Shown piece by piece: positions 33,104 to 59,798 of a stretch of 64,000 nucleotides of DNA. This stretch comes from Cyclonatronum proteinivorum (GTDB lineage Bacteria > Bacteroidota > Rhodothermia > Balneolales > Cyclonatronaceae), in contig NZ_CP027806.1 of NCBI RefSeq assembly GCF_003353065.1, positions 2,500,501 through 2,564,500 on the forward strand. The letters run 5' to 3'. The notes beneath the pieces are model-generated. The model was not told where the DNA came from. It did no database searches and saw nothing but the letters and a program-made list of their open reading frames with translations. The translations under genes and the position numbers were made by a program. The stretch's first letter is position 1, and each line of letters opens with the position of its first letter.

Positions 33104-33195
33104 CCGCCACAACTCACCCCAAAAAAGCCGCAGCAACGCAACACCCTTAAAAAACCCAAAAAAATCGACCACAAGCCACAAGCCATACCAATCAT

Positions 33196-33283
33196 TATTT
33201 TTTGGGGAAAACTCAGAGAACATCAATGCCCCTGTCATAGATTAAACACCCCAAAACGAAGATGAATGCGTTGCTTTTTTTTT
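33196..33283 (-). repeat. 85-95 bp intergenic hairpin element, copy F
   Basis: On the minus strand it reads AAAAAAAAAGCAACGC, TTCATCTTCGTTTTGGGG and TTGATGTTCTCTGAGTTTTCC plus CCAAAAAA. It belongs to the first subtype, but its inner stem is not conserved. It lies 92 bp after the lnt stop. Confidence 0.6.
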
Positions 33284-33362
33284 CTTCGAAACCAACTTGG
33301 CTTCCAGCGAAAAAAGAGCATGCCAATTGGGCTCAAATGTTACTGTAAAAACTGAGCTTATA

Positions 33363-36160: not shown

Positions 36161-36231
36161 TTACCAGCACTGATGCAATTGATTGAATAGCCCACTGACA
36201 AGAAACCGATAATTACCCCCGAACTTCACGC

Positions 36232-36259
36232 GCAGAGACGCGATGACTCGCGTCTCTGC
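36232..36259. repeat. GAGACGCG palindrome, copy 1
   Basis: GCAGAGACGCGA-TGAC-TCGCGTCTCTGC, 12-bp arms. Related copies lie at 45481-45503 (degenerate), 46117-46144, 56548-56575, 56975-57002 and 59344-59371. The two arms are intact in most copies, while the 4-bp loop varies. Confidence 0.8.
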
Positions 36260-36286
36260 TCTACTGCATCGAAAAAAACAGCGGCA

Positions 36287-36321
36287 AAAACCCTGTAGGT
36301 TTTCGAAACCTCCAGGGTTTT
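36287..36321 (-). terminator. Hairpin/terminator candidate 3' of the PLD-like gene
   Basis: AAAACCCTG, AGGTTTTCGAAACCT and CAGGGTTTT form a long imperfect hairpin followed on the minus strand by T5. It lies 96 bp past the stop of the PLD-like gene. The sequence is also of a type seen as a dispersed repeat in this bacterial group. Confidence 0.5.
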
Positions 36322-36333
36322 GGAATCTTTACC

Positions 36334-36390
36334 TTTGTTGATCCCGATCAACAAAAAGAAGGTCAAATTGTAGGTTCCCATCAACAAAAT
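36334..36390. promoter_or_regulatory. Paired TTGTTGAT/ATCAACAA palindromes without a gene
   Basis: TTTGTTGAT-CCCG-ATCAACAAA (36334-36355) is a perfect 9-bp dyad with a 4-bp spacer. A second, degenerate site with the same spacer length (36367-36390) lies 33 bp further. The same arrangement occurs upstream of the AAA ATPase at 58588-58646. No gene now starts next to this copy. Confidence 0.5.
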
Positions 36391-36416
36391 TGATGGCAAC
36401 CGGATATTTCACCGTT

Positions 36417-37727
36417 TCAAGCATCGCTTAACCCTAAGCCTTGTTCCATATCTGTAATTTGATGATAATCAGCGGAATCAATTATTCCTTTTTCTACAAG
36501 CTCATTGAGGAATTCTTCATCTCTTAAGTCTTCATAAGTAATGTCGCTATAGCGAACAGTTAACATCATCCTATCTATCAATTCAGGAATCTTGGGCCAT
36601 TTAATCTTATTAATTATATTCTGCAAGTAATCGTTAATAAAATACGACATACGCTCTTTATCATTTTTATATATCTTAAACCTTTCCTTTAGTATTTTTT
36701 CCTTATTCTCTTCCAAAAAAGCTCTTAACTCAGTGCTAAAATCTTCTTTTACTTCATTAACTTGATTGAAAAGCCCAAATACCAACTCATTTCCAACATG
36801 GTGTAACCTTGCCTTCATTTTTTCAATTTCTATCTCAAACTTAATTTTATCTTCAACTTTCAATAAACTTTCATCTCTGCTTGGCATTTTGCTCAAATAT
36901 ACCTCCCGAATTTTACTTAAGCCTTTCTGAAATTCATTTAATGGCTGAAAGTATTTATCTATCACACCTTTATTAAATACATTCAGCTTACTTTCCAGTT
37001 TATTTTTTAAATCTGAATTATTGATGGGCAGGGCATCTTTGGGTATGGTTACCTTTTTGTATTTAATATTACCCCCCTCAAACTTCAGTTTCACATATTG
37101 AAATTTGTTGGAGTAAAAATCTACAATGCGTCTGAAATCGGGTTTGAGGGGCGGATTTTTTTCAATGTCCTTTTTTACTTCTTCGAACTTCTCGTCCGTA
37201 ATCGGATTGCTTTTTTTAAGCTCAGCCTGCATTAAAACTAATATGTGGCTATAGTCTGCCATTTCCCTTTCCGCTTCCATCGTTTTTTTGACATTTATTA
37301 TTAATTCCTGAGGCGTCACCGTCTTGAAGAAAAAGTACATCATCTTTAAGAGGTTAATCCTATCGATTGCAACAGCGTTGAGATAAGGCGTTTCGCCTGA
37401 TGCCAGTATGCGGGATTCTGTGAAGAGGTAGTAGCCCGTATCATCGGAAATGATGAAAGAGATGCGGTTCTTGGGCATGGTTTGCATGGGTATGCCTGCT
37501 TCGCGCAGCATGGCGATGCTTTCAAAATCGCCATGACCCCGACGGAGGGTTTCAGAATCGAAGTCGATGATCAGGCGGATATCAGGGCTGGAGCGCCTTT
37601 GGTTTAGCTCCAATAGGGCCTGTGCGGTTTGTTTGTGCAGGGCGGGCAGGCAGAGGAGGAGCTGTTTTTTGGTCTTGCGAATAAATTCATTCAGACCAGA
37701 TTCTGTGAAGGAAGTAAAGTAATCCAT
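36417..37727 (-). CDS. Degenerate phospholipase-D-like protein in the defence locus
   Basis: This 436-aa protein is not assignable with certainty. Residues about 1-125 look like one half of a PLD-type nuclease/phospholipase: an N-terminal helix and strand (LNEFIRKTKKQLLLCLPAL), DIRLIIDFD, REAGIPMQTMPKNRISFIISDDTGYYLFTESRIL. The place of the HKD motif lacks the His and Lys, so catalysis is doubtful. The C-terminal two thirds is helical, charged and visibly AT-richer at the DNA level. A PLD protein (DrmC) is part of DISARM, which makes this a possible counterpart. It is the last gene of the methyltransferase-TPR-PLD run, 81 bp after the TPR gene. Confidence 0.6.
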   Translation of the reverse strand: MDYFTSFTESGLNEFIRKTKKQLLLCLPALHKQTAQALLELNQRRSSPDIRLIIDFDSETLRRGHGDFESIAMLREAGIPMQTMPKNRISFIISDDTGYYLFTESRILASGETPYLNAVAIDRINLLKMMYFFFKTVTPQELIINVKKTMEAEREMADYSHILVLMQAELKKSNPITDEKFEEVKKDIEKNPPLKPDFRRIVDFYSNKFQYVKLKFEGGNIKYKKVTIPKDALPINNSDLKNKLESKLNVFNKGVIDKYFQPLNEFQKGLSKIREVYLSKMPSRDESLLKVEDKIKFEIEIEKMKARLHHVGNELVFGLFNQVNEVKEDFSTELRAFLEENKEKILKERFKIYKNDKERMSYFINDYLQNIINKIKWPKIPELIDRMMLTVRYSDITYEDLRDEEFLNELVEKGIIDSADYHQITDMEQGLGLSDA

Positions 37728-37808
37728 GCGTGTTGGTTCAGGGGATGATGGTTTTTGGGATGCTTAGATGGACAAATATTCAGACTATGGGCTTGAGGAA
37801 CCCAGGCC

Positions 37809-40367
37809 TTATCTCAGCTCGCTTAGTATGCGCTCAAACTCTGTTTCAACATTTTTTTTGTGGTTGTCTTTGAGCGTTTTTTTAGCCGCTGCAACCAGTA
37901 ACGTTAAGGTTACGGATGCTAATCTTTTATATGGAGGCGGAATGATTTCACTGATCTGCGGTATCATAAATGCAGCTGCTTCAAAAAGTATACTTTCATG
38001 GATCGGTTTTTCAAGATAGTCAAGATAATGGGATACCAGTGCCACAACCTTCATAATGGCAATATTGTGGCGATCAGAGTCTTGCTCTGCCTGAATATAA
38101 ACCTCTGTAAGTTCATAAAATGCAAGCTGATAGGGAACACCAACCCGAATCATTTTCCGGGTCAGTGCTGCCAGGTCTTTGTAGTCTCTTTTTGTGCTTA
38201 AGAGCTCATTTCTGAAATTTTTAAGGGCAAGTTTTTTTTCCTGGGTTTCAACGTAATCCGGCACAGCCAAAGCCTTTTGCTGTACCAAATACCCCACAAG
38301 CATGCCTGTGAGCTCGGTATCGCTCATGGGGATTTCATAGGGCTTCTGATCTAAGATGGCGGCTAAGGCATCGTTGATTTCCGGCTTGCGGTTGGTTTCA
38401 AGGATTTGCCGGTCGCGCATTTTGAGCAACTCAGGGTTGATTTCGAGCAGGTATTCGTCAGCAAACTGCTTGTTCTCTTCGGCGCTTTTTATAGCTTGGC
38501 TGAGCGTTTGGAAGGCCGCATAAAAAATCGGGTCTTCTTTGGGGGCGCCAAGGTTGGCCGTCGAGGTTAAATCTGTGACATCATCTGCGATGTGGTAGGA
38601 AGAAGACAGGTAGAAGTACAGGTCCATATCGCTGAGGGCAAACCTGCTGTCGAGATTATTGTCTATGAAATCGTAGGTTCGCCAGGGCTGCTGATGGCTG
38701 TAGGCGGTTAGGTAGGCAAGGGTGAGGCGTTCCTGAAAGCTCAGGGAGAGTGAGGGCGTGAGCGCTTCAAAGCCCAGTATGAGCAAAAATTTATCAAGCT
38801 GATCAAAAACGGGCAGCTCATACTTGTCGAGCGTGTCCTTGCCGTAAGCCTGCACATTATCGGGCCGGCTTTCAATATTTTTCTGCAGCAGGTAGGCCTG
38901 CCGGTTTTGGTATCGTTTGAAAGCGGCAGCCGAAATTACAGCCTCCTCTTTAAATTGGGCGCATAAATGGCCGATTCCAAACAAATCATTGCTATCGATG
39001 AGGATGGCCTTAACCGCCTGCTTGTAGGCTTGAGGTTTCCTGCCCTGCGCGAACAGCGCTTTTGACCAATATACCCGGGCTTTCACATAGGTATCCTTGC
39101 TGTCGGCTACCGCTTTATTACAGGCCTCAATGGCTTTGGGATAGGTTCCAATATTGTAATACAATATTGCTTTGTTTATAGACGCATCCGGATATTTCCC
39201 TTCCGGGCTGTCCCCCTCCGCTTTCTCATACGCCCCAATCGCTTCTGCGTAACGGCCTAATTTTTGTAATGCATTTCCGCGATTGTTTGACGCAAGCGGA
39301 AATTTCCCTTCCGGGCTGTCCCCCTCCGCTTTCTCATACGCCCCAATCGCTGCCTCGTAATGGCCTAATTTTTCTAATACATATCCGCGATTGTAAGACG
39401 CAACCGGAAATTTCCCATCCGGGCTATCCCCCTCCGCTTTCTCAAAGGCCCCAATCGCTGATTCGTAATGGCCTATTTTTTCTAATACATATCCGCGATT
39501 CTTTGACGCATCCGGAAATTTCCCTTCAGGGCTGTCCCCCTCCGCTTTCTCATACGCCCCAATCGCTGCTTCGTAACGGCCTAATTCTCGTAATGCAATT
39601 CCGCGATTGTAAGACGCATCCGGATATTTCCCTCCCGGGCTGTCCCCCTCCGCTTTCTCAAAGGCCCCAATCGCTTCTGCGTAACGGCCTAATTCTCGTA
39701 ATGCATTTCCGCGATTGTAAGACGCAACCGGAAATTTCCCTTCCGGGCTATCCCCCTCCGCTTTCTCATACGCCCCAATCGCTGCTGCGTAACGGCCTAA
39801 TTTTCCTAATGCATTTCCGCGATTGTTCGACGCAACCGGAAATTTCCCTTCAGGGCTGTCCCCCTCCGCTTTCTCATACGCCCCAATCGCTTCTGCGTAA
39901 CGGCCTAATTCTCGTAATGCAATTCCGCGATTGTAAGACGCATCCGGATATTTCCCCTCCGGACTATCCCCCTCCGCTTTCTCATACGCCCCAATCTCTG
40001 CTTCGTAATGGCCTAATTCTTGTAATGCAAGTCCGCGATTGTTGGACGCACCCGGATATTTCCCTTCCGGGCTGCAAGCCTCTGCAAACTCCCATGTAAG
40101 TACTGCGATAAGCTTATACCCTTTTTTATATGAATCATATGCTGCATTAAACCACGCTTGCGGTTCCCGTTCAAGAGTACCAGCTATGCGATCACGCATA
40201 TCCCTAACATACCATTCTAAAAACCGCTCATATTCCGGGATTTCAATCCCCTTGTAATCCCGCTTCAAGGCATAAATATCATTTACCGCATCATTATATT
40301 TATGCTGTTTAATAAGCGCGTTAATCTGCGCCATTCTCGCTTTGAGTTCATCTGATAGGTGCATCAT
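37809..40367 (-). CDS. Protein with nine 36-residue TPR-like repeats, defence locus
   Basis: This 852-aa protein has two parts. Residues about 100-430 hold nine near-identical 36-residue repeats of the pattern SPEGK.P.AS.NRG.AL.ELGRY.AAIGAYEKAEGD, a TPR-type helix-turn-helix repeat suited to protein binding. The DNA repeats (108 bp, 39.19-40.07 kb) are so alike that copy number could change by recombination. The C-terminal 420 residues are helical and unrecognised, with AT-rich DNA at the 3' end. It lies between the methyltransferase and PLD-like genes on the same strand (38- and 81-bp gaps). A scaffold or sensor role in the defence complex is an inference. The double ATG leaves the start ambiguous by one codon. 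Confidence 0.75.
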   Translation of the reverse strand: MMHLSDELKARMAQINALIKQHKYNDAVNDIYALKRDYKGIEIPEYERFLEWYVRDMRDRIAGTLEREPQAWFNAAYDSYKKGYKLIAVLTWEFAEACSPEGKYPGASNNRGLALQELGHYEAEIGAYEKAEGDSPEGKYPDASYNRGIALRELGRYAEAIGAYEKAEGDSPEGKFPVASNNRGNALGKLGRYAAAIGAYEKAEGDSPEGKFPVASYNRGNALRELGRYAEAIGAFEKAEGDSPGGKYPDASYNRGIALRELGRYEAAIGAYEKAEGDSPEGKFPDASKNRGYVLEKIGHYESAIGAFEKAEGDSPDGKFPVASYNRGYVLEKLGHYEAAIGAYEKAEGDSPEGKFPLASNNRGNALQKLGRYAEAIGAYEKAEGDSPEGKYPDASINKAILYYNIGTYPKAIEACNKAVADSKDTYVKARVYWSKALFAQGRKPQAYKQAVKAILIDSNDLFGIGHLCAQFKEEAVISAAAFKRYQNRQAYLLQKNIESRPDNVQAYGKDTLDKYELPVFDQLDKFLLILGFEALTPSLSLSFQERLTLAYLTAYSHQQPWRTYDFIDNNLDSRFALSDMDLYFYLSSSYHIADDVTDLTSTANLGAPKEDPIFYAAFQTLSQAIKSAEENKQFADEYLLEINPELLKMRDRQILETNRKPEINDALAAILDQKPYEIPMSDTELTGMLVGYLVQQKALAVPDYVETQEKKLALKNFRNELLSTKRDYKDLAALTRKMIRVGVPYQLAFYELTEVYIQAEQDSDRHNIAIMKVVALVSHYLDYLEKPIHESILFEAAAFMIPQISEIIPPPYKRLASVTLTLLVAAAKKTLKDNHKKNVETEFERILSELR
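39190..40075. repeat. 108-bp in-frame tandem repeats in the TPR gene
   Basis: The segment CCCTTCCGGGCTGTCCCCCT recurs every 108 bp (39198, 39306, 39522 and so on, with small variants). Near-identity between copies suggests recent duplication or gene conversion. Frame is preserved. Confidence 0.8.
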
Positions 40368-40405
40368 TAAATCTCCTTTCTGTTCTTTGTCACACGGCTA
40401 AACCC

Positions 40406-43400
40406 CTAAAACAAATCGCCCTGATTTGTCGCGCTTGGGGGGAGGTTTTTGCGCGATACGCGTTTTATACTGAAACCCTGTTCCGGAGCTTCATCCTTGT
40501 CTTGCCCGTAGGCCGCACCGGGTGCATTAACCTGATTGGGCTCACTTACACCCTCAGCCTCAGCCTTAGCCTTAGCCTTAGCCTTAGCCTTAGCCTTAGC
40601 CTTAGCCTTAGCCTTAGCCTTAACCTTAGCCTTAGCCTTGGGTTTCTTCTTCTTTTTCGTCAAATCTACCTGATACTTTTCCCAGACTTCCTGCATTTTG
40701 GCGAGGTGTGCTTCCATGTCCCAGGCGGGGCGCAGGCGGTCGTAGGCCTCGAGGATGAGGCGGCGGGTGCGGTACTCGCCGTGTTTGCGGAGCTCCTTGT
40801 CTTTGAGCACGCGGAAGGTCACGCCGGGGAAATCGGAACCGTGCACGTCCTGCGGATCGAGGATGTAGCGCAGCTCGTCGCGCTCCAGACCGTACAGAAG
40901 CGCAAAGTGCGCGTCTAACTCCGCGCGCAATCGCGCACGGCGTTCCTCATCCCATTTGAAGGGCGGCAGCGGACACCCCTCCCGCATATCACCATTTGCT
41001 TTGTGATATTCCGGCTCCGGAACCCACACGATTTCGGGGTAGGCCGTGTACCAGTCGGGAATCTCCCACGGGTGACCGCCGGTCTCGCGAGCGTTGTCCT
41101 CCCACTGCTGACGAATCGCCTCACGCAGCCCCTCATCCGCCTCCCGCCAGAGATCATCGGCGAAAGCTTTGATGTCCCAGGAGGTGTAAATCAGCTCGTG
41201 TATTTTTGCAATAATCGATATTGAGTTATCTAGAATATCTATCGAAATAACTGGGAATTGTTTGACATAAAAATAGGTCATCGATGTTCCACCAATTTTC
41301 TGACGCACAAAATAGTCGAAAATCAAACTATTTAATTGGCTTTGCAAATAAGCCAATTTTTTAATTCCATTATTCAAAAAAAATAATGGTGCCTTATGAT
41401 TAACACCTGATTTAGGCAATGTTGAACAAACAAAAGATCTTTCATTTGTATTATTAGTTACATCCCTAAATCCCACAAACCAATTATTACGATCTAAGTA
41501 ACCTACATTATCAGAAGAAATCCAGTACCAGGGAATAATAGTTACTTCACATTCATCCTTTATAGAACTTGTTAATCTTCGGGTTTTATTTCGGTCTTTA
41601 GCATATAAATAATCATTACACCAATGATCATCATGCCAAAAGAATTTTCCCTCATACAGCGGCAGCCAAACCTCCTCCCCCTTCACAAAACGGTTCCCCA
41701 TCAGTGTAAAACCCGCGCTGCGCATTTGGGCTTCGGTGCGAAACAGGCCGGAGTCGTTGCTCATGTGAAACATCGTTGAGAAACTGATACCCCAGGGATT
41801 CTGCCCCTTTTCCTCATTCACCAGTACCGGTACCCGACTGTAGATTTTCGCGGTCAGCTCGGCATCCTGACGGGTGCGGAAAATCGGGGTTGTTTTGGTG
41901 TTGGGGTTGATGTTCAGAAAATCTTCACGGCTCAAACCAAAAACCCGACGCGCATCCTGCAGATCAAGCACATCGTGCAGGAAAAACCCGAACTGCATCC
42001 GCCGTTCCGCCACTGCAGTACCAATGGTAAGGAGGGAAAATTTGTACCGGCTATCAACCGCTTCAAAAATTTTCTTCCGGTTTTCAAAATCAAACAGCGA
42101 CTCAAGGCGACCGCTTTCCACCAGGTCAGCGAAGAAAAACTTGTTGGTGTCGTCGGTTGCAATGCCGGTCGGCACCACAAATCCGCCGCGGCCTTCCGCG
42201 CTGAGGGCATCCTTCACAAGTTCCGAAAAAATACTGTAGGTGTTGATGTCGCCTCTTCCCGTGAGCGGGTAGCGTCCGCTGTCACGAATGAAGCGCGAGG
42301 CCGATTCACCCTCATGCAGCGCTGCCCGGTAGGCTTCCCACAAGGCAGGCTTGGTCTGCGGCAGGCGCGCAATCAGCTTCTTCCGGGCCGCAGCATTCGG
42401 GGCGTTGGCAATTTCATCATCAAGCGGTCCAAAAAATTCCTTTTCCTGCAGCTTGATGCGCTCCCAGGGCGGATTGGTCAGAATCACATCAAAGCCACCG
42501 CGCTGCGCGATGTCCGGAAATTCGAGCGGCCAGTGGAAGAAGTGCTGTTCCCCGGCAAGGCCCTCGGCACGGGCTGTTTTCAGGTTTTGTGCCCGCCGCG
42601 GCTCGCTCAGGTGCAGCGCAAGATCGGCGCTCGTTACGCAGTCCTCCGGCTTGCTGCCCTTGGGGTAGGACTGATAAAAAGCATAGGTGAACAGATCGCA
42701 GGCCTGCCGCTTGTGCCGGAGACCGGGGTCGAGCTGCAGCTTTTCGAGGGTGCGCTGCTTGGCGAAATAATCCTCCACTCGCTCCACCGCAGCCGCGTTC
42801 AGGGCTTCATAACGGTCGGCCAGCTCCTGCTGACCCTGCCCCCAGCTCCCCTGCTGCTGAAACACATCGAGCTGTTTTGCTTTCAAAAAGTCGCGGTTGA
42901 TCTTCTTCGCCGCATTCACCACAGTCTTGTCGTCGCCGCTTGCTGCCTTAAAAGCCTCGTTGGGGATGAGTCCGGCAAGCCGGTCGAGGCGGTCAACGCC
43001 AATCAGGGAATCGCCCTGCTTGATTTTATGCTCCAGGAAAGTGAGCGGTTTGCCGCTGTTGTGCCCGACCAGCCAAAGGCTGATGCGGCAGAGCTCCACG
43101 GCAGCGGGGTTTTTATCCACCCCGTACAAACAGTGCTGAATCACATCACGCAGGGCCTGCTGCACCCAGTGCTCACCCGGATTTTCCTCACCAGCCCGTA
43201 CCTTCGCCAGTTCAAAAGCCAGCACCCGTGCAGCGGCAATCAGGAAGTGACCGGAGCCGGATGAGGTATCGGCGACCTTGATGCTAAGCAGGGCCTGCGC
43301 CTGCACCGCAGCCCCTTTCGCCCCGTGCAGCCGTTCCCGAATCACCGGCATCAGGGTCGTTTTGATGAGCTGTGCCACGAGATCGTGCCGGGTGTAGTAA

Positions 43401-44794
43401 GAGCCGGTGAGCTTTTGTTCCGAGCCTTCCGTGAAAGCAAAAACGGGCGTAGCCGTGTTGGTTTTAAAATAAGGATGCAGCTCAAGCAGGGCTTCATACA
43501 CCGAGCCGAACTCTTCCACATCCAGATCGCGGTAGTTCACCCGCACGAGGGCACCGGCCTCATTCCGGAAGGAGGTGAGCTTGCCGAGAATCTGAAGGGT
43601 GTGTTTATTGGAAAGCCGGAGGCGGTACAGGTTTACCTCGTCTTCAAGGCCCTGTTCTGCAAACAGGCTGCCGCCCAGCGGCTGAATGCCAATCTGTTCG
43701 CCTGCGCGCGTAGGCTCAAACAAACGGAATGACGTAAGCAGACTCTGCCAGAGGTCGGTTTTCAGCGGATCGATCCAGGCAGCAGAAACGGCAAGGCCGC
43801 GCAGCCGCTCCAGGCTGTAGAAATCGCGGTAGATCTGCTTGTACTGCAGCCCGGCTTCGTAGCCTTCCTCCCCGGCTTTTTTCTGCGGAAATACAAGGTC
43901 GCGTTCCTCAATGGTAGCCAGAAAAATGATGCGGTATATGGTGCGCAGCAGCAGCCGGTAAAAACGGACGGGGTCGGCCTGCTCCTCGCGTATCGCCTGC
44001 GCGAAAGCCGTGTTGGCAGGGTGCGCAATCAGCCCGTTGGCCAGCACCTCCATCGCTTCCTTCACGGCAATGCGCAGCTTCGCACGGATGCGGCTGCCGG
44101 CATCAAGGGAATCCTGATGATAGCCCTCAAACAGGCAGGTTTCGGCCTTCTCCCGGCTTTGCGGCATGCGGGAAGCGTGCAGCACCCGGAACAGCAGGGC
44201 GAATTCGTGATACAGTTCTTCCTCCATCATTTTTTCGAGGTCGAACTCCAGATAAGCAAGGCGCGCAAGCCGGGCCGAATTGCGCAGCAGGCGCAGGCTG
44301 CGCCCGTTGCTCACCAGTCCGTACAGATGATCGCTATTGTTGAGGTACTCCTGCAGGAGGGCGTGCGGCGACATGCTCAGGCGACCGCCTGCGGGTTTAC
44401 GGTCCAGCTCATCCTTAAAACTCATAATGAGCACCGGAAAGCGGTCGAGCCGGTTCTCCCGGTGCGAAACCGCATACGTTTTGCCGGCAACGCTCTCCGC
44501 GGTACTGCTCTCTGCCTGATAGCCGAGGTTGAGCAAAAAAGGCAGCATCCAGGTTGTGCGCGTTTGGGCAGTGCCGTACTCGCTTTCTGACAGCTTCTCC
44601 ATTTTGGCGCTAAAAATCTGCCACTGCAGCCGGGCATCCTGCCAGGCCTGCCCAATCTGATCGCGCAGCGAATCATTTTTCCCAAACCCGAAATCAGCCG
44701 CCTGCTGCCCCGTAAGCTGCTGTTCCTGCCGGATTTTATCCAGCATCTCCAGCGAAATAATGTTGCCCTGTATGGTGATAGAAGTAAAAGTCAT
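40406..44794 (-). CDS. Eco57I/DrmMI-type adenine DNA methyltransferase
   Basis: This 1462-aa protein is a large N6-adenine methyltransferase like those of type IIG and DISARM class 1 systems. Motif I is VADTSSGSGHFLIAAARVL (about 500-520) and the catalytic motif IV is NPPW (about 772). The N-terminal ~300 residues (FPVLIMSFKDELDRKPAGG; LSPHALLQEYLNNSDHLYGLVSNG-like) match Eco57I-type N-domains. A target-recognition-like region (about 1050-1205: LAYLQSQLNSLIFDYFVRQKIGG, FYVKQFPV) is AT-rich against its flanks. A Lys-Ala repeat tail precedes a C-terminal QGDLF. I used the ATG at 44794; the frame is open to 44860. Methylation presumably marks self DNA. It heads the methyltransferase-TPR-PLD run. 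Confidence 0.85.
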   Translation of the reverse strand: MTFTSITIQGNIISLEMLDKIRQEQQLTGQQAADFGFGKNDSLRDQIGQAWQDARLQWQIFSAKMEKLSESEYGTAQTRTTWMLPFLLNLGYQAESSTAESVAGKTYAVSHRENRLDRFPVLIMSFKDELDRKPAGGRLSMSPHALLQEYLNNSDHLYGLVSNGRSLRLLRNSARLARLAYLEFDLEKMMEEELYHEFALLFRVLHASRMPQSREKAETCLFEGYHQDSLDAGSRIRAKLRIAVKEAMEVLANGLIAHPANTAFAQAIREEQADPVRFYRLLLRTIYRIIFLATIEERDLVFPQKKAGEEGYEAGLQYKQIYRDFYSLERLRGLAVSAAWIDPLKTDLWQSLLTSFRLFEPTRAGEQIGIQPLGGSLFAEQGLEDEVNLYRLRLSNKHTLQILGKLTSFRNEAGALVRVNYRDLDVEEFGSVYEALLELHPYFKTNTATPVFAFTEGSEQKLTGSYYTRHDLVAQLIKTTLMPVIRERLHGAKGAAVQAQALLSIKVADTSSGSGHFLIAAARVLAFELAKVRAGEENPGEHWVQQALRDVIQHCLYGVDKNPAAVELCRISLWLVGHNSGKPLTFLEHKIKQGDSLIGVDRLDRLAGLIPNEAFKAASGDDKTVVNAAKKINRDFLKAKQLDVFQQQGSWGQGQQELADRYEALNAAAVERVEDYFAKQRTLEKLQLDPGLRHKRQACDLFTYAFYQSYPKGSKPEDCVTSADLALHLSEPRRAQNLKTARAEGLAGEQHFFHWPLEFPDIAQRGGFDVILTNPPWERIKLQEKEFFGPLDDEIANAPNAAARKKLIARLPQTKPALWEAYRAALHEGESASRFIRDSGRYPLTGRGDINTYSIFSELVKDALSAEGRGGFVVPTGIATDDTNKFFFADLVESGRLESLFDFENRKKIFEAVDSRYKFSLLTIGTAVAERRMQFGFFLHDVLDLQDARRVFGLSREDFLNINPNTKTTPIFRTRQDAELTAKIYSRVPVLVNEEKGQNPWGISFSTMFHMSNDSGLFRTEAQMRSAGFTLMGNRFVKGEEVWLPLYEGKFFWHDDHWCNDYLYAKDRNKTRRLTSSIKDECEVTIIPWYWISSDNVGYLDRNNWFVGFRDVTNNTNERSFVCSTLPKSGVNHKAPLFFLNNGIKKLAYLQSQLNSLIFDYFVRQKIGGTSMTYFYVKQFPVISIDILDNSISIIAKIHELIYTSWDIKAFADDLWREADEGLREAIRQQWEDNARETGGHPWEIPDWYTAYPEIVWVPEPEYHKANGDMREGCPLPPFKWDEERRARLRAELDAHFALLYGLERDELRYILDPQDVHGSDFPGVTFRVLKDKELRKHGEYRTRRLILEAYDRLRPAWDMEAHLAKMQEVWEKYQVDLTKKKKKPKAKAKVKAKAKAKAKAKAKAKAKAKAEAEGVSEPNQVNAPGAAYGQDKDEAPEQGFSIKRVSRKNLPPSATNQGDLF
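40563..40645. repeat. GCCTTA hexanucleotide microsatellite inside the methyltransferase gene
   Basis: About ten perfect GCCTTA units (40563-40622), then a variant unit and two more, encode alternating Lys-Ala on the minus strand. A change in unit number would alter the tail length but not the reading frame. Confidence 0.9.
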
Positions 44795-44882
44795 GTCAGA
44801 GACCCTGATAAATAATGCAGTATAATAAAAGCCTGCAAAAAAAGGGTCATTGAACCCCAAACTTCCTCATTAATCCGGCATT

Positions 44883-44975
44883 CTTTTTTGTGAGGAAAAA
44901 TTCCGAGAGCATCACTGTCAGCAGTGCTGATTCCCGGCATCCCAAATCGGTCTCAAAGCACCTTGCTTTTTTTTG
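44883..44975 (-). repeat. 85-95 bp intergenic hairpin element, copy G (second subtype)
   Basis: On the minus strand: AAAAAAAAGCAAGGTGC, GAGACCGATTTGGGATGCC, then CACTG-CTGA-CAGTG as a perfect 5-bp stem, then GATGCTCTCGGAATTTTTCC. Compared with copy E, the middle pair changes from T-G to C-G, keeping the stem. It lies 90 bp upstream of the methyltransferase start. Confidence 0.7.
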
Positions 44976-45010
44976 ATCAGTATGTCAGTTAAGGCAGTAT
45001 GTCAGGGATT

Positions 45011-45289
45011 CAATTTTGAGCCATGACATTGTTTTTGCTTGGGATACAAACTCCCCTCTTGAGAGAGGTGCCCCCCATTTTCAGTGTGTCACAGCACAGT
45101 ATGTCAGTGTGTCAATTTTGAGCCATAATATTGTTTTTGCTTGGGATACAAACTCCCCTCTTGAGAGGGGTGGCCCCCATTTTCAGTGTGTCACAGCACA
45201 GTATGTCAGTGTGTCAATTTTGAGCCATAATATTGTTTTTGCTTGGGATACAAACTCCCCTCTTGAGAGGGGTGGCCCCGGTAGAAGCG
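45011..45289. repeat. Three tandem 102-bp repeats carrying CCCCTCT...AGAGGGG arms
   Basis: CAATTTTGAGCCAT starts at 45011, 45113 and 45215, a period of 102 bp. Each unit continues through GCTTGGGATACAAACTCCCC, a TTGAGAGGGG arm, and a GTGTGTC/GTATGTC-rich leader. Single relatives of the leader lie at about 34045 and 55890, each just before a CTCCCCTC arm. The rest of the 44795-46796 block shows no clear gene. Confidence 0.8.
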
Positions 45290-45589
45290 TGTGAAGGGCC
45301 ATTTAGCTCGAACAGCCTCCAACTCCATTCAACGCCCCGATGTTGAGGGGCCGGGGTGTGGAGAAGCCGGTCGCAGGCAAGAAACCAAATTACAGGCTCT
45401 TGGGCAATTTGTGGGACAGCCTACGGGCAGCGAACCTATTATCAACCGCGATCGCCCGCATCGCATAGACGGGTCGAATCGAGACGCGATGAATAGCGTC
45501 TCTGCAATGCCGGGTGTCAGATCAAGTTTTTAACCCCGCGAGAGGGTTCGAAAAAGATACATCCACAGTAATATGGCGCCTACAAAAAA

Positions 45590-45700
45590 TGGTGTGAGGC
45601 GGGGGAATCGAACCCCCGGCGCCCTATTGGGTGCAAAAATGCTTCGGAACAGCTACCCCATCTCCCGCCTGGATTGGAAAAACCACCATGGTTGCCTCAC
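45590..45700 (-). tRNA. tRNA-like sequence or tRNA 3'-end remnant
   Basis: On the minus strand the last part reads as a perfect T-arm (GGGGG-TTCGATT-CCCCC), then GCCTCAC, A and an encoded CCA. A matching GTGAGGC lies 111 nt upstream, so a 7-bp acceptor stem can form. A variable-arm-like hairpin (GCACCC-AATA-GGGCGC) precedes the T-arm. There is no convincing D-arm, and the anticodon region is doubtful (a 3-bp stem around a loop containing TCC). It is too long for a normal tRNA and lacks a tmRNA start or tag. A 3' fragment left by a site-specific integrant is plausible. Confidence 0.3.
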
Positions 45701-46116
45701 AAGAACACCATTCCGCACCAAACACCTTTAAGTATGCTTGTAATTGTCATAATTAGCTCCTGGATTAGCGTGAAAGTTAAGTTTAACGTTTCAGCGACCA
45801 TGATAGCTGACTTTTTCAATCCAAGCGAGATGTCAAGGCTGATCTCCACATTTGCATTGATCACCAATTTCAAAAAAACAAAAAGCTTCCGATAATGCCG
45901 AAAGCAAGACGTCTGAAGATACGAAAAAATGGGGCCTCCTAAAATTACCCGAATATTATCGGGATGATGCGCACGTCAGAGACCTACTTCGGTGCATTTT
46001 CAGACAGCCGTTTGCACAGGGCGTACCTACGGCACGCGATATTTTTGGATAATGACGATTTTCTACCCACATGCTGCCCCTACAGGGCAGTCGGGTTTTC
46101 CGCATTGGTCATCCGC

Positions 46117-46144
46117 GTAGAGACGCAAAATCTCGCGTCTCTAC
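46117..46144. repeat. GTAGAGACGC palindrome, copy 3
   Basis: GTAGAGACGC and GCGTCTCTAC with an irregular centre (AAAATCTC). It is part of the same dispersed palindrome family as 36232-36259. Confidence 0.7.
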
Positions 46145-46360
46145 AGTGCCGGGTGCCAGAACCAATTTGAGACCCACCACGGGATGCATTCCGCACAAAT
46201 CCCGCAAAATCCCTAAAATCCGCGTTCTATCATCGCGTACCCTGACGTTGCCCTGTGTGGCGTCAGGAGCCGAGCTCCCGCATCCGGGCTATCACATCCC
46301 GCCACAGACAAATAAGATAAGACACCCTACATACGCAGTAACAACAATTAACCACGAAAC

Positions 46361-46613
46361 CGTCATCCCGGAAACGCTCAAACCAAAGCAAATAATCACC
46401 TCAAAACACACTGGCGTTATCCGGGATCTACCAACTTCGGCCTGCGACCTTCCCTGTAGCCCACCACCAAAACGCTGCACGAGACTTTGCAGAACCGACA
46501 TCGCAGCCGGAAATTCATATTGCGGCATTTCCCGCTTGGCAGATCCCGGATAATGCTGCTTTACGTTTCGTGCAGGTTACCAATCCCCACGCCGCAGCAT
46601 TTCCGGGATGACG
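46361..46613. mobile_element. MITE-like 253-bp element with nested inverted repeats (single copy 2)
   Basis: Outer arms CGTCATCCCGGAAA and TTTCCGGGATGACG; inner arms GTTATCCGGGATCTACCA (46416-46433) and TTGGCAGATCCCGGATAA (46536-46553). The length is within 1-3 bp of the other copies although the core sequence differs. It lies about 180 bp beyond the SNF2 stop codon. Confidence 0.75.
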
Positions 46614-46653
46614 GTCTCAGGACAAGGGAAAATAATAAGCCTCGAAGCCTAAC

Positions 46654-46690
46654 AAACCCTTCAAGAGTTCAAAACCCTTGAAGGGTTTTC
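46654..46690 (-). terminator. Hairpin/terminator candidate after the SNF2 gene
   Basis: AAACCCTTCAAG and CTTGAAGGGTTT form a perfect 12-bp stem with an 11-nt loop. It lies 106 bp past the SNF2 stop on the side where transcription would end. Confidence 0.6.
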
Positions 46691-46796
46691 GCGCTGATTC
46701 CGGGTAATGGTTCTTATCACCAAAGCGAATAGGCTTCGTGCTGTTTGTGCAATACCCGCTTTATTTCCAGCAGTAAACAACTCTTATCCCGCTTGT

Positions 46797-49639
<2,843 letters not shown>

Positions 49640-49643
<4 letters not shown>

Positions 49644-52600
49644 AGTTTTCGAAAAATATCTTTGCGTCGGGAAATAAGTTGTTCAATAGAAGCGGTAATG
49701 TCCTCACCGGAGCGTTCGTTAAAAAACCAGGTAATAACATCAAGACCGCTGTCGCGCATAAGGTTGCGTTTGTGTTCGTCCTCTTTCTGCTGCCTGTCAT
49801 TGGCATGTATACTACCATCGCAAAAGAGAAAAGCCTTTTGCTTGCCCTGCGGGTCATAAAACACAAAATCGGCATTGATGAAAAAACTGCTAAGATTCTC
49901 CTGTGCGGTATTGGGCAGCACATATCGGTTTTTATAAAGATAGTGAATGAGCGGTGCTTCAGTGGCAGAGGTATAATCGATGTTTTTCAGCAGCCACTGA
50001 TACTGCTCCTCGTAGCTGCGGTTTTGGATAAAGCGCTCCAGCACACTATCCATGAGGCGCTCGAGCGGCTCCTTCACTTTGGTCCGGTCGAGACTGTCGT
50101 GATACGGCTGATTGTAGTAGGAAAGCAAATCGCTGTAGGAAGCCTTAAGCAGATTCTCACCGTCTTCGGTACGGGTTTCCGGATCGTAATGAAGAATGCG
50201 GTAGGCTTCGGTGTAGACCTGCTTCATTTTAGCGTCTTCGCTAATCATTTGCGACAAGATACCAAGACTGCCTTCAGCAGCCTCATACAGCATGATGTTG
50301 GGCGCTTCCGGGCTTCCGAGAATCCAGACGCCGATTTCACTTTCTTCCACCTGAAACACGGTTTCAACACCGCGTTTGAGCGCATAAGCTAGGGTGATGA
50401 CCTGATCGGGTTCCAGGCCCAGCTCTTTCACGGGCTGCAGGTAGAGCGTATCGGCTGTATCGCGGGCGAAAATCCGCACCTCGCGCAGATACTTTTTCTT
50501 TTCGGGATCATCCCGGTCTGATTGACGCAACCATACGCCGGTTTCTTCATGAATAAGAAAACTATCCTCAGCCTGTGACCTCCTCCAGCGGTGATTAACC
50601 TGCACGAGCTGCGTAGCAGGGCAGTAAATGGCGCGCAGCAGCGGCTCACCTGCTACTTTAATATTGGCCTGCTGGGTCGCCTCAATGCCCTGCGGATAGC
50701 TGAAATAGTTGTCGATCTGATAGCCGGTAGAGGTGCGCTCCTCTTCTTCACAGGAGATACGTTCCTGCGGCAGGGCTTCGGTTTCACTGAGCTCCGTCAG
50801 ATTGGCAATGACGGTCATGGTTTCACCGGAATCAAGTGCTTTTCGTGTGATGGGGTCATTGTTGGATTCTGCATCTTTATCCCCAACAAAAATATAGCTT
50901 GTTTCCTTTGATACGACGGCCTTTTGCAGACGCAGCTGAAGGTCGGCCAGCATCATGCGGTGAATGCGGTATTTGCTGCCATTGTGGTAAATAAGGTTAC
51001 CCGGCCCGAATTCCTTGAGCGCAATAAACCGGGGGCGGGAGATATAGCTGCCCTGCTGCTGACTGCGGTAACCGGCATACACCCGAACCGGCAGGCGAGT
51101 AAAGTTGTAACCGGGCAGGAAGCCTTCTGCGGCCAGATAGCGAAACACATAAAATTCCGACTCATTGCCGAAGCGGTCGCGCTTGTCGTTGAGCAGCAGT
51201 TCCTGCTGCCGGAGTGCAGATTTTAGGAGGAGGTCGGCATTTCGCTTCTCCGGACTGGATGACTTGATGGTGGGATCTTTTTGAATTTTCTGCGCTCTTG
51301 AAATGGTCTGCTGCACATGCCGGAAGAGTACCCGCCAGCGCTCAAAGGCTGAATTAAAATCATGCCAGAAATTACCCGCCTTCTGGAAAAGATATTCGTC
51401 GGAGTACCAGCTTGTTTTCTTCAGCCGCGGAATCAGGCCGCTGATGACCGTAAGAAATTCATTGGCCCATTTGTCTGATGATTTCAGGGCCTGATGAATG
51501 GTTTCTCTGATTTCATCCCGAACGGGCAGGGTATCGGGGCGGCTAACATCAATTACATCTTTAACAGAAACACTTAGTTCACGAAGGGAGAGTTTCATCA
51601 GGATAAAAGCATGCAGATGGCTAAGCAGCAGCTCTTCATTGATGAGGTCGATGCGCGGTGGCACAACTTTGCCTGAAACCATTTCCTCGGGTTTGCTAAA
51701 ATAATTGCGGTCGTGTGGGGAGCGGTTGGCACAATAGGTGAAAACGACAGCAGTTTGTCCGCTTCGGCCCGCCCTTCCGCTACGCTGCGCATAGTTGGCC
51801 GGGTTAGGGGGCACGTTTCGCATATGCACAATATTCAGCTCCTTAATATCAATGCCCAGCTCCATAGTAGGTGAACAGAACAGAGCAGAAATTTTGCCCT
51901 TACGAAATTCATTTTCCCGTTTAATGCGCTCATCGGCATCTACCTGCCCGGTATGCTCTGCACCGCGTATGGTTTTGGTGAAGGTACTGAAATCCGTTTC
52001 ATACAGCTCCTTAAAAAATATGTTAGGCTTAATCTTCAGATCTTTAAATGACGGGTTCCGGACGGGGTCTGACCACACCGTTTTGCCGTCGCCCAGCCTC
52101 CACACAATGTTATCTGTTCGAAGCCGATAGCCCGAAACCGTATCCTTTTTCCCTTTAATTTCGCTGACTGTGAGCTGATTGGCCTTTTTGAGGAGCTGAC
52201 AGATTCTTTCTGCACAGACCTCATAGGCCTCTGTATTTGGTTTTTCCAAACCCTTCTTGACGAAAAGCTGCTTGATATACTTACCAAATTTGGACTGAGG
52301 GCCAATGGATTCCGTCGGAAAATCTCGACTTGTTTTCCCTGGATTTTTATACCGCATGTATGTCGGCGAAGGAATTCTCCAGTTTTTTTCAGGAGACCAG
52401 AATTTATTTTCGTCCAGCTTAAGCTGCATCATACTTTCCGTTTGGCTTCTGTAGCTTTCAAAATACGGATGTGTGATGGCGTTGGAGGTTCGGAAATAGT
52501 GCAGCAGATTGGTCAGAATTTCAACCCTGCTTTCAGGGGTTTCATTTGCGAGAATTTCATTTCCGGCAAAATATTCGTCCCTGCCGCAAAATTCATCCAG

Positions 52601-54949
52601 CCTGTCATAGGAAATGGTAAGCAGACCAGTTTGCTCGAGGTTGGGAAGGTTATAGCGCCAGCCTTTTTTCAGATCAAGCAGCAGCAGAATGAGCAGGTAG
52701 CTTTTGAAAGCATCCTCATTTTCTTTATCCGGAAAATCATCATTCGGTTCACGTGCATACTCTGCCTCTTTAATGTTAAGAACATCAAAAACGGCATCCG
52801 CCAAATCACGCACTTTTAGCTTGTTCTTGTCTTCATTTTTTAGTGCGTGATAGAGTGCAGAGCGGAGCCGGACGGTTACAATGAAATCATTAAAATGGCC
52901 AGCTTGCAGGGAAGCATCCTGACGATTATCGGTAAAGCTAAGCAGCTTCTGAATTTTATCGGGCTGTTGTTGCCGGATGAGTTCGCGGACAACCCCGAAA
53001 GCTGTAATGGTCGTCGCGGTGCTTCGGCCTTCGTTACCGAGCTTCATAAGCTTTGTATTTTCTTTCGTATTGCTGCCGTACACCATACCGGAGGTTGGAT
53101 CAAACAGCAGCCGGGCAGGCACAAACCAAGCCGCAAAGGGGCATGATTCCGTAGGGTTATCGGAAAACTTACCCCGTTTGTTTACATAAATCCGCCTCGG
53201 AACCCGATAGCTGTGATAGTCTTCAAGCCTCGGTTTTTCGTTAACCTCACTCCACCAGGTGTCGGGCAGCTCGCGAATTTGGTCATCGCTCCAGATCGGG
53301 TCTTCGCCTTCATAATCAAACAGCAGGTAGCCGTCGGGAAACAACTCAGGCGATAGTTTCTGCTTTTGTTTACCGGTTTTGTGGTTTTTCTTAAGACCAC
53401 TTTGGGTAACGTTAGCCGTAACCTCGTCGGGGTCGCGCGGCTTTAGTTCGTGCTTCTCGAAATCTTTGCGCACACACAGAAACTCATGTCCTGAATGCCG
53501 GCTGAATACCAGCGGATACAGATACACCTGTTCCTGATCTTCCCCGACAAGGTACCGCTCAGTATAAAGACTGAGCCTGCGCCTGCCGGGTGGTTCAAGG
53601 GTCACAAAAACCGTACTTGTCTGTGAAACAAACTGATGCAGTTTAAAAGGAAGAAAGCTCTCCCGGCTTTTCCGAGCTGCCGCCTCTGCGTTAAGGTTTT
53701 CAAGAACTGCAAGAAGAGAGGTCAGGGTTACAGAGGCCGTACTGTGATCTGCTCCGGTATATTTGGCAAGCTGTATTGTAATTTGATCAATGCGTTGTGG
53801 TGTTCCCCGCTGAAAGTGATTAGGTTCTTTCTCGATGATAGCAACTTCACGTTCGAGCCACATGCAAAGGGGGTGTGTCCTGAAATTTTCGGCGGTAACG
53901 GGAACTTCAAAAGCGCCACGAACCGATTCCGGGGTATAGGCAGTATCAGGATCGGTGTAGAACTGCAGGTACTCACCAATAACCTGATCAGTTTTGTAAG
54001 TACGGTCAAAAATAATTTTGCCAACTTCGGCTACAGCCATTTTCTGTTCCTCAAGGCCTCCTTCAGTTGCCATAGTAGCGGAAGTACCAATACAAATAAT
54101 TTCTTCACCCTTTAACTGCTTAATCCTTCTCACCAGCATGCTTACATCAGAACCCTGCCGCCCCCTGTAGGTATGTAATTCGTCAAAAACCAAAAATTTA
54201 AGGTCGGCAGCCATAGCCTGCCGCATCCAGCTTTCTTTCTCACGCGTGAGAATGAGTTCAAGCATCATGTAGTTGGTGAGCAGAATGTGCGGCTTAGTCT
54301 GTTCAACCGCCTGACGCTGTGTATCGCTGCTCTGCCCCGTATAACTGCTGTATCGAATCGGAAACGTCTTGGATGATAGTTTGCGGGCCATCTCAAGCAA
54401 TTCAGCCATAGCCTTATCCTCATTGGCTTTGCTATCCGGATCGCAAATCTCCTGATTAGCCTTACTCATAAAACTACGCAGGTAATTGATCTCATACTTC
54501 ATGATTTCTTCCTCCTGCGAATTAATGAGCGCATTCATCGGATAGACCAAAACAGCAGCTATTGAATTAAGCGAATCTTTATGTTTTAGAACATAATTGA
54601 ATATGGTCGCCAGAAATGTCAGTGACTTACCTGATCCTGTTCCTGATGTAACAATAAACCCATTGTCGCTTATCCCCTGTCTGATCGCTTCTTCCTGATG
54701 CCGGAATAGACGGTAATTACCCAATATGTTGGGAATATCTTTGTGCATACCACGAGCCAAAAGAGCATCAATGTTTTCTGAACGATCAAAAGCAGGGTTA
54801 AACTGTACGAGGGGCTCTGGTAAAAGACCATTGGTATCAAACTTTTCTTTTACATGTTTAAGAATACTCTCATCTTTAATATTTATGAAAGATTTGATGT
54901 ATTGCTTGTACTCATCAGTAACCCTTTTGTGAAGATCTAAAGCATTCAT
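49640..54949 (-). CDS. DEAD helicase-DUF1998-nuclease-like fusion (DrmA+DrmB-like)
   Basis: This 1769-aa protein leads the defence operon. The N-lobe has Walker A TSGTGSGKS (about 101-109), FDELHTYRGRQGSD near 253 and GTSATM. The C-lobe has CSPTMELGIDIKEL and NYAQRSGRAGRSGQ near 1060. The segment AEGSLGILSQM (about 1558) with ASYSDLLSYYNQP.H.SLDR (about 1603) matches DUF1998, but the cysteines usual in that stretch are replaced by Ser and Asp. The last ~90 residues (ADFVFYDPQG; FLFCDGSIHANDRQQKEDEHKRNLM; LDVITWFF) resemble VSR/DUF559-type PD-(D/E)XK nucleases. In DISARM the helicase DrmA and the DUF1998 protein DrmB are normally separate. The upstream 400 bp is AT-rich and probably holds the promoter. 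Confidence 0.82.
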
Positions 54950-55360
54950 ATCAAATCACGCCGGTATTTAGTAGAGAAAACGGTCCGTTTTGTTCAAAAA
55001 AATTGAAACTAACTATAGACGTTAAATAATTTATATTCATAAAGTTATGCAAACATGTATATTAATGACTTTAATTTCATACCGATAGCAATATAATAAA
55101 TCACTTGCTGATGTAAAGCTGTAAACATCACCGATACGGTTGAAATTAGAGAGCAAAACCCAAAAAAAGATCGGCCAAGTATGACCAAAGGCTTTTTCAA
55201 ACCCCATGAGTAATTAAACCTATTTCCATATTATTCACGCCGACATCCTGTAAGTTCTCTAGATTGTTGAAGCTTTCAGTCGAGGTAAAGATGTGATTAA
55301 TCATCCTTCAGCCAGCTAATCGCCTCTTTGTTAGTATAAATATAACCTGGCTTCGGTTTA
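54950..55360. promoter_or_regulatory. AT-rich upstream region of the defence operon
   Basis: This stretch is markedly AT-rich (for example around 55010-55110) and lies directly 5' of the helicase-nuclease gene. No clear promoter consensus or operator could be fixed. A short remnant frame is at 55297-55368. Confidence 0.4.
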
Positions 55361-55368
55361 GGGAGCAC
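55297..55368 (-). pseudogene. Short C-terminal gene remnant
   Basis: A minus-strand frame from a GTG at 55368 gives 23 residues ending KPGYIYTNKEAISWLKDD. It looks like the end of a real protein (YTNKEA..WL is helix-turn-helix-like), but the upstream part is replaced by repeat sequence. This is a weak call; it could be chance. Confidence 0.2.
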
Positions 55369-56547
55369 ACACTACAATAATGCCCTCCACACCCCGCACT
55401 TTCGCTACACTCACCCGTGCACCCCTCTCGAAAGAAAATTTTTTATATCCCAAACAATAACAATAGCACATATCCATATTGGCACGCTGAAACACCGATA
55501 CACTAGCTCTCTGCCGTACTAAGCCGCCGGAGCGGGGTGTGAAGATCTCCTCAAAGGGCGAGTAACGCAGATATAACCTTCGGACCCACCGCAACCCATG
55601 CCCCGCACAGTCGAGATCGTGCACCGCTCATGAGGGCCGTGGGTCAGCATTGGTACTCCTTCGGGTTTCGTTCGCAACCCAGGCGGACAGCCCCATCCCC
55701 CACCCGAACAAGACCCGAACGTGACCCGAACGTGACCCGAATATGACCCGAATATGACAGGCTGCATTTGCAGCGTTTTTTGCGTTCTGAGTTCAAAGTT
55801 CTGCGTACTGAGATTAGCAGCTCTCGTATCAGGCTTCATGCTTAATATTGTTGAGGATGTAAATAATCTCCTCTTGAGAAGGGTGGTTCTTTTTCAGTGT
55901 GTCAAGAAACAGTATGTCGGTGTGTCAGTGTGTCTTTTGCAGGTTATGATGTTGATATTATTTGGGATACAAAACTCCCCTCTCGAGAGGGGTGGCCCCG
56001 GTTGTTGGGCGTGAAGGGCCATGAAGCCCGAACTGCACCCAATCCCTTTCAACGCCCAAATGCTGACGGGCCGGGGTGTGGAGAGGCCGACCGAAAGCTA
56101 CGAACCAAATTACCGGCACAACGGCAATTGTGGTGGGGCAGCCTGCGGGCAGAAGCTCCTTGGCGTAAGCTGCTGGAATCCCGGCACCGAGGCGGTCACA
56201 CCCCGCCCGTTCGCTTCGCTCACCCGGGCAACTCTCTCGCAGAGGGGAATTTTAGCTCCCTGGCTTTTCAGGATTTCCAGGCTCAAAACTAAATGTTGTA
56301 ATTCAGGCATCGAAGTCTTTATTAAAAAGGCACTTACCAATTTCCCTCTCGAGAGGGGTGGCCCCGGCAGGAGCCTATGAAGGGTCTTGAAGCCCAAGCT
56401 GCATCCAAACCCTTTCAGCGCCTCGTGGGTGACGGGCCGGGGTGTGGAGATGCCAGTCGAAGGCAAGAAACCAAATTACCGAAAGAGAGGCCATTGGTGG
56501 GACAGCACACGGGCAGGAAACCAATTCTTACCACAGAACCCCTGCGT

Positions 56548-56575
56548 GTAGAGACGCGATGAATCGCGTCTCTAC
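56548..56575. repeat. GTAGAGACGCG palindrome, copy 4
   Basis: GTAGAGACGCGA-TGAA-TCGCGTCTCTAC with perfect 12-bp arms. Confidence 0.85.
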
Positions 56576-56974
56576 AGGGGCGGATTTCAAAACCAATCTG
56601 ATAGCCGACGCCGAAACCGGTTGTAAGGGCGGACACGCAGGACCGCCCCTACAACCAGCACCCCTCTCGCAGAGGGGAGTTTTGGCTCCGTGGTGTTTCA
56701 GGATTTCCAAGTCATAACAACAATCTAAATATGGCATCGAAGCTATTATTAAAACAGCACTTACTAACTCCCCTCTCGAGAGGGGTGGCCCCGGCAGGAG
56801 CCTATGAAGGGTCTTGAAGCCCAAGCTGCATCCAAACCCTTTCAGCGCCTCGTGGGTGACGGGCCGGGGTGTGGAGAGTCCGACCGAAGGCAACCAATCA
56901 AATTACCGGCACTGCGGCAATTGGTGGAATAGCCCACGGGCAGCGAACTAATAATTTGCCCCGAATACTGCATC

Positions 56975-57002
56975 GTAGAGACGCGATTCATCGCGTCTCT
57001 AC
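56975..57002. repeat. GTAGAGACGCG palindrome, copy 5
   Basis: GTAGAGACGCGA-TTCA-TCGCGTCTCTAC with perfect 12-bp arms; the loop is the reverse complement of the copy 4 loop, so the element is inverted relative to it. Confidence 0.85.
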
Positions 57003-57302
57003 GGGGGGGGGATTTCAAAACCAAATCTGATAGCCGACGCCGCATCCGGTTGTAAGGGCGCGTCACGCAGGTCCGCCCCTGCACCGGTTGATTACCACAT
57101 ATGCGAATACAGGGGCAAAAAAATAATTTAACCTACCTATACTTGCACAGCATCGCTTCTCCTTCGGGATTCATTTGCAAAACAAGTGGACAGCCCCGAA
57201 CATGACCCGAACGTGACCCGAAGGAAGTGCCTTATTTTTTCCTATAAAATAAGGCGCGTAAAACGTGACGTTTGAGTCCTCCATGAGCTGCATCTTTGTA
57301 AA

Positions 57303-59791: not shown

Positions 59792-59798
59792 CCTTCGA

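What the first reader, a model, noticed from the sequence alone, without database searches (positions are those of the whole stretch)
36417..54949. DISARM-related defence locus with a fused DrmA-DrmB-nuclease protein and extra TPR/PLD-like genes
Seen: five minus-strand genes encoding a DEAD helicase with DUF1998-like and nuclease-like tails, an SNF2 helicase, a large adenine methyltransferase, a TPR-like repeat protein and a PLD-like protein. Known: class 1 DISARM consists of drmD (SNF2), drmMI (adenine methylase), drmA (helicase), drmB (DUF1998) and drmC (PLD). Inferred: this is a variant in which drmA and drmB are one polypeptide carrying a C-terminal nuclease-like module, with an additional repeat scaffold. 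I cannot say whether this variant has already been described.
Basis: partly seen in the sequence, partly recalled or inferred. Interest (0 to 1): 0.85.

Follow-up and report, generated by a model that had tools for sequence, protein, structure and literature searches.

The report
Zinc-free ARMADA Type I phage-defence operon
This is an ARMADA-type bacterial anti-phage system (a helicase-nuclease, a second helicase and a DNA-marking enzyme), already described as a class; what looks new is that its branch has lost every conserved zinc-binding site of the central helicase, and that it carries two extra genes, one from a small family that keeps turning up inside other restriction systems.

Summary
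The five minus-strand genes are real, but the locus is not a DISARM with a novel DrmA-DrmB fusion. It is an ARMADA Type I system, a class described in a 2025 preprint (PMC12458937): a YprA-family helicase with fused DUF1998-type canopy and C-terminal Vsr-type nuclease, then a BrxHII-like SNF2 helicase, then a PglX-like adenine methyltransferase. About 15 other loci (Bacteroidota, Burkholderiales plasmids) have the same three genes in this order. In sister genomes the flanking genes are neighbours, so the locus is an inserted island.

New here: the window's YprA belongs to a 16-member, fully supported branch in which all three conserved zinc modules are lost (0-2 of 11 cysteines remain), while 18 other ARMADA and 2 Druantia proteins keep 10-11 of 11. 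The partner SNF2 helicases form the same branch. I found no report of this.

The TPR and 'PLD-like' genes are not part of the conserved system. The latter has no HKD motif and no fold assignment, but most of its few relatives sit inside Type I R-M, BREX-1 and Hma/BREX-related loci, suggesting a shared accessory of methylation-based restriction. A 1.9-kb nest of genomic repeats splits the operon.

The parts
49640..54949 (-). YprA-family helicase (ArmC-like), 1769 aa: RecA core (GTGSGKS 103, DELH 256, QRSGRAGR 1055), DUF1998/MZB-type canopy without its cysteines, C-terminal Vsr-type PD-(D/E)xK nuclease (about 1640-1769)
46797..49643 (-). BrxHII/RapA-like SNF2 helicase (ArmA-like; PADLOC best DpdE then DrmD), start overlaps the YprA stop by 4 nt
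44861..46796 (.). 1.9-kb insertion of dispersed genomic repeats (108 matching places in the own genome, itself included), with a 3 x 102-nt tandem array at 44995-45300; no gene of the system
40406..44860 (-). PglX/DrmMI-like adenine methyltransferase (ArmB-like; DTSSGSGHF 531, NPPW 796); probable start ATG near 44794; C-terminal Lys/Ala-rich tail
37809..40367 (-). TPR protein, 8 near-identical 36-aa repeats plus a C-terminal half with no relative in 296 genomes; accessory
36417..37727 (-). accessory protein of a small unnamed family found in Type I R-M, BREX-1 and Hma/BREX-related loci; not shown to be PLD
33104..61746 (.). inserted island: flanking lnt and sugar-epimerase genes are immediate convergent neighbours in three same-genus genomes

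Best explanation
An ARMADA Type I anti-phage system of a zinc-free sub-branch, inserted as an island. Proposed mechanism (inferred): the PglX-like methyltransferase marks host DNA at its site; incoming unmarked DNA is engaged by the SNF2 (BrxHII-like) and YprA helicases, which translocate, and the Vsr-type nuclease at the end of the YprA protein cuts it, so defence acts directly on phage DNA rather than by killing the cell. Shown here: gene content, order, motifs, phylogeny, loss of the zinc ligands. Shown by others, only for E. coli Type II: phage defence, need for helicase and NPPW motifs, non-abortive mode. Inferred: marking, cutting, and that the TPR and 36417-37727 proteins are accessory sensors, regulators or back-up effectors.
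For: Triad YprA-SNF2-MTase in this order in L003, L037, L038, L041-L051, L053, L054 (one other gene between SNF2 and MTase in L047/L048). Full-length YprA similarity 39-49% in the nearest loci. Tree places the window protein with ARMADA I loci and outside the E. coli ARMADA II (L082: SNF2-MTase-YprA-GajB) and Druantia rows, 100/100 for its 16-row branch; the SNF2 tree is congruent. Catalytic motifs intact. C-terminal E, D, D, H, D invariant in 16 homologues. Definition and Type II experiments. Zinc loss: all-or-none at 11 columns in 36 proteins, one change on a tree built without those columns. Empty site, and other defence-like cargo at the same place, in sister genomes.
Against: No function shown for any Type I system. 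A repeat nest separates the SNF2 and methyltransferase genes and may break co-expression. The Vsr-type assignment rests on motifs and weak profile hits; the AF2 model was poor (pLDDT 47). The preprint describes at least two CxxC motifs as a feature of this lineage; this branch lacks them, so its fold may deviate. The preprint's own Type I representative could not be retrieved for the tree, and the ARMADA II and Druantia rows have long branches.
Confidence: 0.82

Rival explanations
1. Variant class 1 DISARM in which drmA and drmB are fused and drmC is the 36417-37727 gene.
For: DrmMI and DrmD profiles match two proteins; DUF1998-like region present.
Against: DrmA profile only 37 bits over the last helicase motifs against 269 for DruE; DrmD equivalog cut-off missed, 325 vs 610; no HKD in 36417-37727; tree and gene order fit ARMADA.
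Confidence: 0.05
2. A degraded, non-functional ARMADA remnant: zinc sites lost by decay and operon interrupted by repeats.
For: Repeat nest in the operon; all conserved zinc ligands gone.
Against: All five reading frames are open; catalytic motifs intact; the same cysteine loss is fixed in 16 proteins of several taxa with conserved replacements (S483, D617, D1607 in 16 of 16), so it is old and looks selected, not decayed.
Confidence: 0.1
3. The TPR and 36417-37727 genes are an independent two-gene defence or toxin-antitoxin module that happens to lie downstream.
For: Neither was found with the triad elsewhere; 36417-37727 has its own much lower G+C, 0.38; relatives occur in other systems.
Against: Same strand, 38- and 81-bp gaps after the methyltransferase; most relatives of 36417-37727 lie with methyltransferase systems, once between pglX and pglZ, which suggests a functional link.
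Confidence: 0.4

Closest known systems
ARMADA Type I (Bell et al. 2025 preprint, PMC12458937)
   Same: YprA helicase first, then BrxHII-like helicase, then PglX-like methyltransferase; fused canopy; C-terminal Vsr-type nuclease.
   Different: Conserved zinc-binding cysteines of the YprA protein lost; extra TPR and 36417-37727 genes; repeat nest inside the operon.
ARMADA Type II (E. coli; reference L082)
   Same: Three homologous proteins; demonstrated phage defence.
   Different: Order SNF2-MTase-YprA plus RelE-GajB ArmD; YprA with extra C-terminal domains and zinc sites.
DISARM class 1
   Same: SNF2 helicase and adenine methyltransferase homologues; YprA-type helicase.
   Different: DrmA and DrmB are separate, DrmC PLD nuclease present, weak sequence match.
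Druantia III (DruH-DruE)
   Same: DruE is the closest helicase profile in PADLOC.
   Different: DruH absent, PLD domains absent, methyltransferase and SNF2 partners present here.
Dpd
   Same: SNF2 protein scores best with a DpdE profile; Dpd YprA also lost the DUF1998 cysteines (PMC12458937).
   Different: No 7-deazaguanine genes seen; PglX-like methyltransferase instead; Dpd keeps one zinc module in RecA1.

Membership tests
ARMADA Type I | YprA homologue followed by BrxHII-like and PglX-like genes | tested here: met
ARMADA Type I | YprA protein clusters with ARMADA I, apart from ARMADA II and Druantia | tested here: met
   with order-defined Type I loci, not the preprint's own representative
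ARMADA Type I | C-terminal Vsr-type nuclease on the YprA protein | tested here: met
   invariant E, D, D, H, D residues, DUF559/MTES_1575 hits; structure model inconclusive
ARMADA Type I | CxxC zinc modules in the beta-barrel, OB insert and DUF1998 (described feature of the lineage, not its definition) | tested here: not met
   0 of 11 cysteines in the window protein; same in its whole 16-row branch
ARMADA Type I | anti-phage activity | not testable with these tools
   shown only for Type II
ARMADA Type II | strict order SNF2-MTase-YprA followed by RelE-GajB ArmD | tested here: not met
DISARM class 1 | separate DrmA helicase and DrmB DUF1998 protein | tested here: not met
   single 1769-aa protein; DrmA profile 37 bits
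DISARM class 1 | DrmD at the NCBIfam equivalog cut-off | tested here: not met
   325.4 vs 610 bits
DISARM class 1 | DrmC PLD (HKD) protein | tested here: not met
   no profile match among the five, no HxK motif
Druantia III | DruH next to DruE | tested here: not met
   no DruH match among the five proteins
Dpd | 7-deazaguanine insertion genes | tested here: not met
   none in the five proteins or in the 20 further window ORFs scanned; rest of genome not tested
PLD (HKD) nuclease, for 36417-37727 | HxK(x4)D motif and PLD fold | tested here: inconclusive
   motif absent; fold not predictable; no profile match

The most novel reading that the evidence does not exclude
One branch of ARMADA switched its central helicase to a zinc-independent design in a single step, replacing all three zinc modules (11 conserved cysteines, the family-defining DUF1998 cluster included) by largely conserved Ser, Asp and Thr, much as zinc-free ribosomal-protein paralogues did, so that defence works in zinc-poor cells or is shielded from phage attack on zinc sites; and the 36417-37727 family is a portable accessory shared by ARMADA, BREX-1, BREX-related and Type I R-M systems.
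Probability: 0.5. Interest if true: 0.7.

Novelty: new variant of a known kind. Interest (0 to 1): 0.52.

Why it matters
Zinc modules have been proposed to aid target recognition, stability and complex formation in defensive YprA helicases. A clean, monophyletic, all-or-none loss with the rest of the machine intact gives a natural comparison: what do the zinc modules do, and can a defence helicase work without zinc? The 36417-37727 family, if it is a real cross-system accessory, points to a component common to several methylation-gated systems that the defence library searched here does not hold.

Tried and rejected
Scans of viral contigs found no relatives of the helicase or of 36417-37727. 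Single-sequence AF2 of 36417-37727 (pLDDT 40) and a two-sequence model of the nuclease domain (47) were too poor to search with, so no fold search was run. PDB profile searches gave mostly helical chance hits for 36417-37727; for the nuclease domain the top but non-significant hits were an endonuclease-like protein and a mobile-intron protein. L007 and L076, hits to 36417-37727, were rejected as partial or spurious; L078 keeps only a fragment. General cysteine avoidance was rejected as the cause of zinc loss: C1025 and C1073 stay conserved in the branch. The Caballeronia relative (L040, near an McrC fragment and transposases) was not counted as clear context.

Full report
What is there. Five minus-strand genes lie at the stated place. 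In transcription order they encode a 1769-aa DEAD helicase with a weak MZB/DUF1998 match, a 948-aa SNF2 helicase whose start overlaps the previous stop by 4 nt, a large adenine methyltransferase, a TPR protein and a 436-aa protein without family. Helicase motifs (GTGSGKS, DELH, QRSGRAGR; DDVGIGKT, DEAH) and methylase motifs (DTSSGSGHF, NPPW) are intact. Between the second and third gene lies a 1.9-kb stretch without a gene of the system; it consists of repeats found at about 100 other places of the same genome, including a 3 x 102-nt tandem array.

What it is. PADLOC's DrmA profile matches the big helicase poorly (37 bits) and DruE well (269 bits), and the SNF2 protein misses the NCBIfam DrmD cut-off. 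Bell et al. [quoted passage not shown] The same triad in the same order is present around nearly all close relatives of the helicase: a Flammeovirga contig, at least a dozen genomes of the same phylum, and plasmids of Paraburkholderia and Caballeronia. A reference ARMADA II was found on an E. coli IncY plasmid (SNF2, methyltransferase, 2113-aa YprA, GajB-like helicase). In a tree of 28 YprA proteins the window groups with order-defined ARMADA I and away from ARMADA II and Druantia. The SNF2 tree gives the same picture.

The C-terminal nuclease. Sixteen homologous C-terminal segments share invariant E30, D60, D77, H81, D90 and R94 (numbering of the window segment). Eleven of sixteen hit DUF559 and five REase_MTES_1575 in Pfam, both of the Vsr-like part of the PD-(D/E)xK group (own knowledge). 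This fits the preprint's Vsr assignment. An AlphaFold model with two sequences was too weak to add anything.

The new feature: no zinc. In the alignment, eleven columns (window residues 483, 486, 617, 620, 1347, 1350, 1365, 1368, 1600, 1604, 1607) are cysteine in all nine other ARMADA I proteins of the first set, and, after adding eight plasmid-borne proteins from Chloroflexota, Deinococcota, Actinomycetota, Campylobacterota and Pseudomonadota, 10-11 of 11 in all 20 zinc-type proteins, ARMADA II and Druantia included. In the window's branch of 16 they are 0-2 of 11 and no CxxC pair is left at these sites. The columns are substituted, not deleted; some replacements are themselves invariant (S483, D617, D1607 in 16 of 16), and non-zinc cysteines (C1025, C1073) are kept. 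On a tree built without these columns the trait needs one change, with 100% support. No intermediate was seen. Zinc independence is inferred from sequence; it needs metal analysis.

The extra genes. None of the other triads examined carries a relative of the 36417-37727 gene, and only one had a generic TPR hit nearby (L047). The cargo near the triad varies: a Fic protein (L047), a TPR-CHAT protein (L051), a DUF2326 protein (Burkholderiales), and in L045 a full-length homologue of ArmD (32% over 701 aa), described so far as a Type II component. The C-terminal half of the TPR protein has no relative in 296 genomes of the phylum. The 36417-37727 family is rare (three good relatives in 394 genomes of the phylum, two in 72,556 plasmids), yet four of these five sit in methyltransferase-based restriction loci: two Type I R-M operons (L068, L077), the end of an Hma/BREX-related operon (L069) and, in Acinetobacter towneri, between pglX and pglZ of a BREX-1 operon; the fifth lies near an McrC fragment. 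I did not measure a background rate for this association.

An island. In three same-genus genomes the genes that flank this region, lnt (31373-33103) and a sugar epimerase (61747-62874), are convergent neighbours about 30-180 bp apart; in the window they are 28.6 kb apart. In the closest relative, G022, lnt is followed by a different defence-like cluster whose proteins look like DarT, DarG, GmrSD and a large helicase and methylase (read by eye from the ORFs). None of the same-genus genomes sampled has the YprA gene. So this is most likely an acquired system at a defence hotspot.

How it probably works. By analogy with ARMADA II, where all four genes, the Walker motifs and NPPW are needed and infected cells survive, the methyltransferase should mark self DNA and the two helicases with the fused nuclease should destroy unmarked DNA. 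This is inferred for Type I. The role of the two extra proteins is open; accessory sensing or control of the methylation-gated core is my first guess for 36417-37727.

Noticed in passing
L045:16360-18438 (G130): ArmD-like RelE-GajB homologue directly downstream of an ARMADA I-order, zinc-free triad: a Type I/II hybrid operon.
   Followed up: partly
L039:19989-21245 (NZ_CP090385.1, Acinetobacter towneri plasmid): Relative of the 36417-37727 protein (WP_039048211.1) inserted between pglX and pglZ of a BREX-1 operon that lies near CBASS genes.
   Followed up: partly
window 31373-33103 and 61747-62874; L109 (G022): lnt/epimerase junction is an insertion hotspot: empty in three relatives, DarTG/GmrSD/R-M-like cluster in one, ARMADA in the window.
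   Followed up: partly
window 44861-46796, 33781-36222, 55867-61657: Several families of dispersed repeats (about 100 places genome-wide) lie inside the operon and on both sides of it; a possible vehicle for island gain.
   Followed up: partly
window 15997-21054 (+): 1685-aa protein that joins a DEAD/Helicase_C SF2 helicase to a UvrD-type SF1 helicase in one chain.
   Followed up: no
window 37809-40367: Eight TPR units at exact 36-aa spacing with almost identical sequence (GDSPEGK), suggesting recent repeat expansion.
   Followed up: no
window 40406-44860, C-terminal end: Methyltransferase ends in a long Lys/Ala-rich low-complexity tail.
   Followed up: no
L068 (G046): Type I R-M operon interrupted by AbiE-like, Fic-like, SocA-like and other small genes together with the 36417-37727 relative.
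   Followed up: no
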